The notes under the pieces: generated by a model | Seen by the model: only the letters and a program-made list of their open reading frames with translations | The model's database searches: none | What the model was told of the DNA's origin: nothing | NCBI GenBank assembly: GCA_018333715.1 | Contig: JAGXSW010000023.1 | Coordinates: 1-32,052 of the forward strand | DNA: 32,052 nt | Direction of reading: 5' to 3' | From: Syntrophaceae bacterium | Lineage (GTDB): Bacteria; Desulfobacterota; BSN033; UBA1163 | Part shown: in pieces, positions 8,616 to 8,821 of the stretch | Numbering within the stretch: position 1 is the stretch's first letter | How the letters are laid out: each line of letters starts with the position of its first letter | Program-made: the position numbers and the translations under genes

Positions 8616-8645
8616 TTGACATTTTTATTTTTTACTTGATAGGAT
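8616..8645 (+). promoter_or_regulatory. Sigma70-type promoter
   Basis: TTGACA (8616-8621), 18-nt spacer, TAGGAT (8640-8645), just upstream of structured leader. Confidence 0.6.
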
Positions 8646-8651
8646 GTAATC

Positions 8652-8821
8652 ACTGCCAAGAAGGCTACCCAGCGGAAGGGACTGCGAGACCTTAAACATA
8701 TCCGCCCCAATAGGGTCGAGCCGCCGAACGGCGTGCAGCTTGGCTCCCCAATATTATAATGTTGGCTAATTTCGGTTTTTTTAGCCGAGCTGCCAGGAAT
8801 ATAGCAGCTCGGCTTTTTTTT
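8652..8821 (+). promoter_or_regulatory. Structured leader with antiterminator/terminator switch (riboswitch-like, ligand unknown)
   Basis: GCAGCTTGGCT (8735-8745) can pair with the terminator 5' arm AGCCGAGCTGC (8783-8793), which otherwise pairs with GCAGCTCGGCT (8804-8814) before a T-run; GAGCC (8718-8722)/GGCTC (8742-8746) is a competing helix. Confidence 0.72.
8783..8821 (+). terminator. Intrinsic terminator
   Basis: Perfect 11-bp stem AGCCGAGCTGC/GCAGCTCGGCT followed by 8 T. Confidence 0.9.

What the first reader, a model, noticed from the sequence alone, without database searches (positions are those of the whole stretch)
8616..8821. Candidate orphan riboswitch/attenuator controlling the DUF2193-like C1 operon
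Read directly: TTGACA-18 nt-TAGGAT, then a leader with small helices (GCCaagaaGGC; CCCagcggaaGGG; CGCC-GAAC-GGCG), then mutually exclusive pairings. Leader segment GCAGCTTGGCT (8735-8745) can pair all 11 positions (one G-U) with the terminator 5' arm 8783-8793, which otherwise pairs perfectly with 8804-8814 before a T8 run. Leader GGCTC (8742-8746) can instead be captured by GAGCC (8718-8722). A third option, GGCTAA (8764-8769)/TTAGCC (8781-8786), also competes. This is standard expression-platform logic, and I could not match the aptamer part to a riboswitch class I know. Because the downstream genes are C1/H4MPT/MFR genes, a pterin, MFR, C1 or Mo/W-cofactor ligand is plausible but untested.
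Basis: partly seen in the sequence, partly recalled or inferred. Interest (0 to 1): 0.88.

Follow-up and report, generated by a model that had tools for sequence, protein, structure and literature searches.

The report
New riboswitch candidate upstream of DUF2193
Upstream of a bacterial one-carbon-metabolism operon lies a 73-nucleotide knotted RNA element, found here at the same place in at least four bacterial phyla and matching no catalogued RNA family, which very likely senses a still unknown molecule and decides whether transcription stops before the genes.

Summary
Rfam has no match. A covariance model of the window leader found relatives upstream of bacterial DUF2193 genes in other lineages. 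Refined models gave 12 instances at 11 loci labelled Desulfobacterota-type, Chloroflexota, Actinomycetota and Armatimonadota; one locus has two tandem copies, each with its own terminator.

The core is 72-85 nt (window 8653-8725). It starts just after the promoter where one is recognisable and folds as a pseudoknot: hairpin PA (CCC/GGG), helix P3 and a closing P1, with the PA loop pairing between the P3 strands (P2). P3 covaries at every pair and P2 is replaced wholesale in divergent members. In most instances the P3/P1 3' strand is also the terminator's 5' arm, so the folded element should prevent termination. The window uses an extra relay hairpin.

One instance precedes a different gene heading the same H4MPT/formylmethanofuran cluster, so the element follows the pathway, not DUF2193. 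A separate feature is a start-less Shine-Dalgarno at 8876-8885. The ligand is unknown; nothing was tested in vitro.

The parts
8616..8645 (+). sigma-70-type promoter TTGACA-18-TAGGAT, A-rich upstream; predicted start of transcription about 8652
   Evidence: promoters at similar distance upstream of related elements
8653..8725 (+). conserved pseudoknotted element (candidate aptamer)
   Evidence: aligned; R2 81 bits, R3 75 bits
8663..8666 (+). P1 5' strand GGCU, pairs with AGCC 8719-8722
8719..8722 (+). P1 3' strand AGCC
8668..8680 (+). hairpin PA, CCC 8668-8670 with GGG 8678-8680
   Evidence: invariant; extended by CCCACG/CGUGGG and CCCAUG/CAUGGG in L014 and L015
8672..8676 (+). P2 5' strand GCGGA in the PA loop, pairs with UCCGC 8701-8705 (pseudoknot)
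   Evidence: ACGGA/UCCGU, CGCAA/UUGCG, UGCAA/UUGCG, GCAAC/GUUGU in relatives
8701..8705 (+). P2 3' strand UCCGC
8688..8693 (+). P3 5' strand GACCUU, pairs with AGGGUC 8712-8717
   Evidence: every pair of P3 shows changes on both sides
8712..8717 (+). P3 3' strand AGGGUC; also inside the relay hairpin 8713-8746
8713..8746 (+). window-specific relay hairpin that captures the antiterminator strand (8713-8721 x 8738-8746)
8735..8745 (+). antiterminator strand GCAGCUUGGCU, pairs with 8783-8793
8783..8822 (+). intrinsic terminator (8783-8793 x 8804-8814) and T run
8876..8885 (+). start-less Shine-Dalgarno sequence AAGGAGGTGA, about 130 nt before the start codon; a separate conserved leader feature
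9016..10548 (+). DUF2193 gene (PF09959); start ATG 9016, RBS GGAGG about 9003-9007
10565..11362 (+). MIP-family channel gene, same operon
   Evidence: same order in L011 and L024

Best explanation
Window 8653-8725 is one representative of a previously unlisted cis-regulatory RNA class, most likely a riboswitch that controls premature transcription termination. The RNA starts just before the element. The element folds as a pseudoknot: P1 encloses the PA hairpin and P3, and the PA loop pairs between the P3 strands. In most relatives the 3' strand of P3 and P1 (AGCCGAGCUGCC) is also the 5' arm of an intrinsic terminator, so a folded, presumably ligand-bound, element blocks the terminator and the genes are expressed; unfolded, the terminator wins. 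In the window this works through a relay: the folded element prevents hairpin 8713-8746, which frees 8735-8745 to pair with the terminator arm 8783-8793. The class serves bacterial H4MPT/methanofuran C1 operons, so a metabolite of that pathway is the leading ligand. Shown by comparison: the element, its conservation, covariation and overlap with terminators. Inferred: ligand sensing, ON direction, ligand identity.
For: Twelve instances at 11 loci. Five were found by R2 without being in its training set (L023 E=7.5e-11; L049 8e-6; L015 1e-4; L014 0.0025; L039 0.035), and L117 by R3 (1.4e-14). Covariation: 6 sequences, 95.6% of cells paired, 7 pairs with double changes, 0 of 500 shuffles, slid versions at most 48% paired; 11 sequences, 6 such pairs, 0 of 500. 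P2 is exchanged wholesale while 54 of 55 own pairs form, and it stays 5-8 nt from the P3 3' strand. Terminator 5' arms start in the P3 strand, 4-7 nt before AGCUGCC. Recognisable promoters lie just upstream in most. Tandem copies with separate terminators in L011. Window antiterminator, 5 of 2000 shuffles. One instance precedes a different gene in the same pathway cluster.
Against: No ligand and no experiment. In L011 the terminator starts only at the last three bases of the element (GCC), so exclusion of P3 by the terminator is not evident there, and the first L027 terminator is weak. Many DUF2193 loci (Acetomicrobium, most Synergistota, Caldisericota, several Chloroflexota) lack the element. 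P1 is nearly invariant, so it has little covariation support. Thermodynamic stability of the window element is ordinary. A protein could be the sensed partner. ON direction is inferred from overlap alone.
Confidence: 0.78

Rival explanations
1. The element is a protein-binding antiterminator or autoregulatory site (like RAT/LicT or ribosomal-protein leaders): a protein, perhaps the DUF2193 product or another pathway protein, binds the pseudoknot and prevents termination.
For: It was found mostly upstream of one family; the same terminator-overlap logic would serve a protein. DUF2193 proteins are very conserved.
Against: One instance precedes an unrelated gene. Many DUF2193 loci lack the element. 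The complexity (pseudoknot with many invariant unpaired bases) is more typical of a small-molecule aptamer; this last is general knowledge, not a test.
Confidence: 0.14
2. The leader is an attenuator governed by a translated leader peptide.
For: In frame 0 the conserved RNA could read GYPAEGTAR-like peptides in several loci.
Against: In the window and most loci no in-frame ATG, GTG or TTG with a Shine-Dalgarno lies between the predicted transcription start and the element; in L024, L023, L049, L015 and L014 a stop precedes the element in that frame with no start between. P3 and P2 covary as RNA.
Confidence: 0.03
3. The terminator simply ends the upstream flavoprotein transcript (or an sRNA) and DUF2193 has another promoter further downstream; competing pairings are incidental.
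For: There is no other terminator right after the upstream gene 7980-8525; the promoter match count is within chance.
Against: The same promoter-element-terminator order recurs at unrelated loci; no second promoter was found in 8646-9015; the antiterminator is unlikely by chance.
Confidence: 0.05

Closest known systems
Moco/Tuco (molybdenum/tungsten cofactor) riboswitch, RF01055
   Same: cis-regulatory RNA next to Mo/W-pterin enzymes; one even lies just downstream of DUF2193 in L015
   Different: no sequence or structure match to the element in Rfam scans; separate element and separate operon in L015
Tetrahydrofolate riboswitches (THF-I, THF-II)
   Same: would be the nearest known ligand type if H4MPT or a C1-pterin is sensed
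   Different: no Rfam match; different core
Small pseudoknot riboswitches (for example preQ1, SAM-II, fluoride, ZTP)
   Same: compact element with a loop-based pseudoknot overlapping the expression platform
   Different: none of these families is matched; different conserved bases (resemblance from general knowledge)
STAB-SD elements (Bacillus thuringiensis cry3A type)
   Same: a Shine-Dalgarno sequence far upstream of the start codon, like 8876-8885
   Different: stabilising role not tested; independent of the riboswitch candidate

Membership tests
Riboswitch (general kind) | conserved structured domain in the 5' leader, supported by covariation | tested here: met
Riboswitch (general kind) | structure mutually exclusive with an expression platform (terminator) | tested here: met
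   overlap of P3/P1 3' strand and terminator arm in most instances; relay in the window; not evident for P3 in L011
Riboswitch (general kind) | direct binding of a small molecule that changes expression | not testable with these tools
   needs in-line probing and transcription assays
Any Rfam 15 family | match to a covariance model | tested here: not met
   no match at the element at the gathering threshold; only chance-level hits at E up to 5-10
Moco riboswitch RF01055 | score above 36 bits | tested here: not met
   found at L015 2654-2774 but not at the element 435-518
Leader-peptide attenuator | translated short ORF with start codon and RBS in the leader | tested here: not met
STAB-SD (for 8876-8885 only) | SD-like sequence far upstream without a start codon at normal spacing | tested here: met
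   no common start codon after the motif across loci; enriched over control leaders. In the window itself a TTG follows at 5 nt
STAB-SD (for 8876-8885 only) | stabilises the mRNA | not testable with these tools
   needs mRNA half-life measurement

The most novel reading that the evidence does not exclude
A new riboswitch class that senses an H4MPT- or methanofuran-linked one-carbon compound (for example a C1-loaded H4MPT) and switches bacterial archaeal-type C1 operons on by antitermination; to my knowledge it would be the first RNA sensor of these cofactors.
Probability: 0.35. Interest if true: 0.95.

Novelty: new variant of a known kind. Interest (0 to 1): 0.86.

Why it matters
It gives riboswitch biochemists a compact, well-delimited orphan class with a clear pathway association, a terminator read-out and twelve sequences to start from. 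If the ligand is an H4MPT or methanofuran species, it would be (to my knowledge) the first RNA sensor for archaeal-type C1 cofactors and a handle on DUF2193 and on the 593-residue protein, two very conserved proteins of unknown function.

Tried and rejected
Blastn of the leader in the own genome and family gave only itself at a meaningful level, bar one weak 22-nt promoter-end match in G007. DUF2193 is absent from the 22 other genomes of the class and from all others in 298 sampled genomes of the phylum, so no close relatives of this leader were available. A first idea, a P1 stem GCCAAG 8655-8660 x CUUGGC 8739-8744 giving an OFF switch, was dropped because those bases are not conserved. A hairpin presenting the orphan Shine-Dalgarno was considered and dropped: no consistent fold. 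R1 hits L102-L104, the weak R2 genome hits and L118 were set aside as weak, the ones inspected lacking the core or a leader context; L119-L121 were not examined beyond a motif count. An exact core pattern in viral contigs found none. The DUF2193 model (pLDDT 76) has no PDB fold match at E<=0.001; the 593-aa protein model is poor (pLDDT 52). Literature held: one paper mentions DUF2193, with no RNA link; none mentions DUF2180, and none was found on this motif. The 224-motif paper of 2017 was not available.

Full report
Checking the observation. The terminator 8783-8793 x 8804-8814 has 11 Watson-Crick pairs (-22.1 kcal/mol); the antiterminator 8735-8745 x 8783-8793 has 11 contiguous pairs with one G-U (-20.0). 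In 2000 dinucleotide shuffles of the leader a complement of that length occurred 5 times. The promoter TTGACA-18-TAGGAT is the only site found in 8400-9100, but its match count is within chance. Overall folding energy is unremarkable, so the case needed comparison. Rfam 15 has no match in the window beyond a tRNA, and only chance-level hits at 8560-9040 with relaxed thresholds.

Finding relatives. The gene downstream is DUF2193, PF09959, E=1.1e-225. It is missing from all other sampled genomes of the class and phylum, so leaders were collected from other organisms: 31 loci, then more from two classes. Plain blastn of the leader found nothing meaningful beyond itself. A covariance model R1 made from the window element alone gave L024 (Actinomycetota, E=4.4e-5), L053 (0.012) and, only at weak scores, L011 (1) and L027 (2.6), all on the right strand upstream of DUF2193; inspection showed that all four share the same core letters. 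L011, from a Syntrophobacteraceae assembly, has two copies 191 nt apart, each followed by its own terminator. The six sequences align over 75 columns with long invariant stretches (GCUACCC, GGGA, UCCG, AGC, GCC).

Structure. On this alignment three helices are consistent: P1, P2 and P3. P3 shows changes on both sides at all six pairs; overall 95.6% of cells are paired, 7 pairs have double changes, none of 500 shuffles reaches these values, and sliding the partner drops pairing to 22-48%. P2 and P3 cross, so the element is a pseudoknot. Model R2, trained on those six, found L023 (Armatimonadota), L049, L015 and L014 (Chloroflexota) and L039 (Actinomycetota, cut at a contig end), again all upstream of DUF2193 or DUF2180-DUF2193. 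In L014 and L015 the CCC/GGG pairs extend into CCCACG/CGUGGG and CCCAUG/CAUGGG, which supports hairpin PA; in these and in L049 and L039 the P2 letters are replaced (CGCAA/UUGCG, UGCAA/UUGCG, GCAAC/GUUGU, CGCGG/CCGCG) while pairing is kept, 54 of 55 pairs, always 5-8 nt before the P3 3' strand. P2 strands were picked by eye; the individual complements are mostly not significant one by one, and the argument is their constant place and exchange. The 11-sequence alignment again beats all 500 shuffles on the covariation measures.

Expression platform. In L024, L053, L023, L039, L049, L014, L015 and L117 the terminator-like stem begins inside the P3 3' strand, a few bases before AGCUGCC, so folding of the element and of that stem exclude each other; the T run after it is short in L039 and L049. 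L027 has a weak first terminator and a stronger second one whose 5' arm repeats GCCAAGCUGCC; the window resembles it, with a relay hairpin 8713-8746 and then the terminator at 8783. In L011 the terminator overlaps only the last GCC of the element. The simplest common reading is that a folded element favours readthrough. This direction is inferred.

Genes controlled. The last genome search, R3 in 397 genomes of the class that holds the L013 genome (an Anaerolineales assembly), gave a new 72-bit instance, L117: consensus promoter, element, terminator, Shine-Dalgarno-like sequence far upstream, then a gene for a 593-residue protein that is not DUF2193 and has no Pfam or PDB match. After it come a nickel-insertion-like protein, methylene-H4MPT dehydrogenase (Mpt_N), an ATP-grasp protein and a molybdopterin-binding protein, the same kinds of genes as window 13163-15511. 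L011 and L024 repeat the order DUF2193, MIP channel, FMN reductase-like, flavoprotein, GHMP-type kinase (identities in those two loci read by eye from the protein sequences). So the element goes with H4MPT/methanofuran C1 operons. In L015 a true Moco riboswitch sits just after DUF2193, ahead of an SDR-like and an aldehyde ferredoxin oxidoreductase-like gene (gene names by eye), so the two elements are distinct and a Mo/W-cofactor ligand is less likely.

Alternatives. A leader peptide fails because no frame has a consistent start. A terminator that merely closes the upstream gene is unlikely because the promoter-element-terminator order recurs at unrelated loci. A protein ligand cannot be excluded.

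A second finding. Nearly all bacterial DUF2193 leaders carry a long match to the 16S 3' end (AAGGAGGTGA-like, longest run including G-U median about 10) 55-150 nt before the start codon, mostly with no start at normal spacing; 36 control leaders from the same loci have a typical run of 6. The same arrangement precedes several genes that look like secreted or lipoprotein substrate-binding proteins among the five genomes searched (reading of the signal peptides is mine). It looks like a general element of highly expressed mRNAs, similar to STAB-SD.

Limits. Twelve instances at 11 loci is a small class; most are in metagenome-assembled genomes, whose labels I take as given. The window genome's sampled phylum list resembles that of the Syntrophobacteraceae genome, which suggests a Desulfobacterota-type host, but this is only inferred from similar genome lists. 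No metagenome-wide scan was available. Ligand, direction and function are untested.

Noticed in passing
8876-8885: Shine-Dalgarno AAGGAGGTGA about 130 nt before DUF2193, present in nearly all bacterial DUF2193 leaders, mostly without a start codon at normal spacing, and before several genes resembling secreted substrate-binding proteins in the genomes searched; STAB-SD-like.
   Followed up: partly
L015 2654-2774: Moco riboswitch RF01055 (56 bits) directly after DUF2193 and before SDR-like and aldehyde ferredoxin oxidoreductase-like genes.
   Followed up: partly
L026 2623-2721; L063 upstream of DUF2193 (about -371): Divergent Synergistota leaders with GGCUACCCUGACCUCAGGGACUG and GGCUACCCUGCCCUGCAGGGACUG right after a promoter but no recognised terminator; possibly a diverged subtype.
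   Followed up: partly
L122 412-2202: 593-residue, very conserved protein without Pfam match (866 relatives counted), heading an Mtd/Fwd-type cluster under the same element.
   Followed up: partly
12050-28501: Large H4MPT/methanofuran C1 gene cluster (MtdB-like, formylmethanofuran dehydrogenase subunits, Ftr, Mch, RimK-like, CitG-like) in a bacterial genome.
   Followed up: no
L012 and L046 leaders: Strong terminators between promoter or contig start and the DUF2193 gene without the conserved element; other attenuation devices may exist.
   Followed up: no
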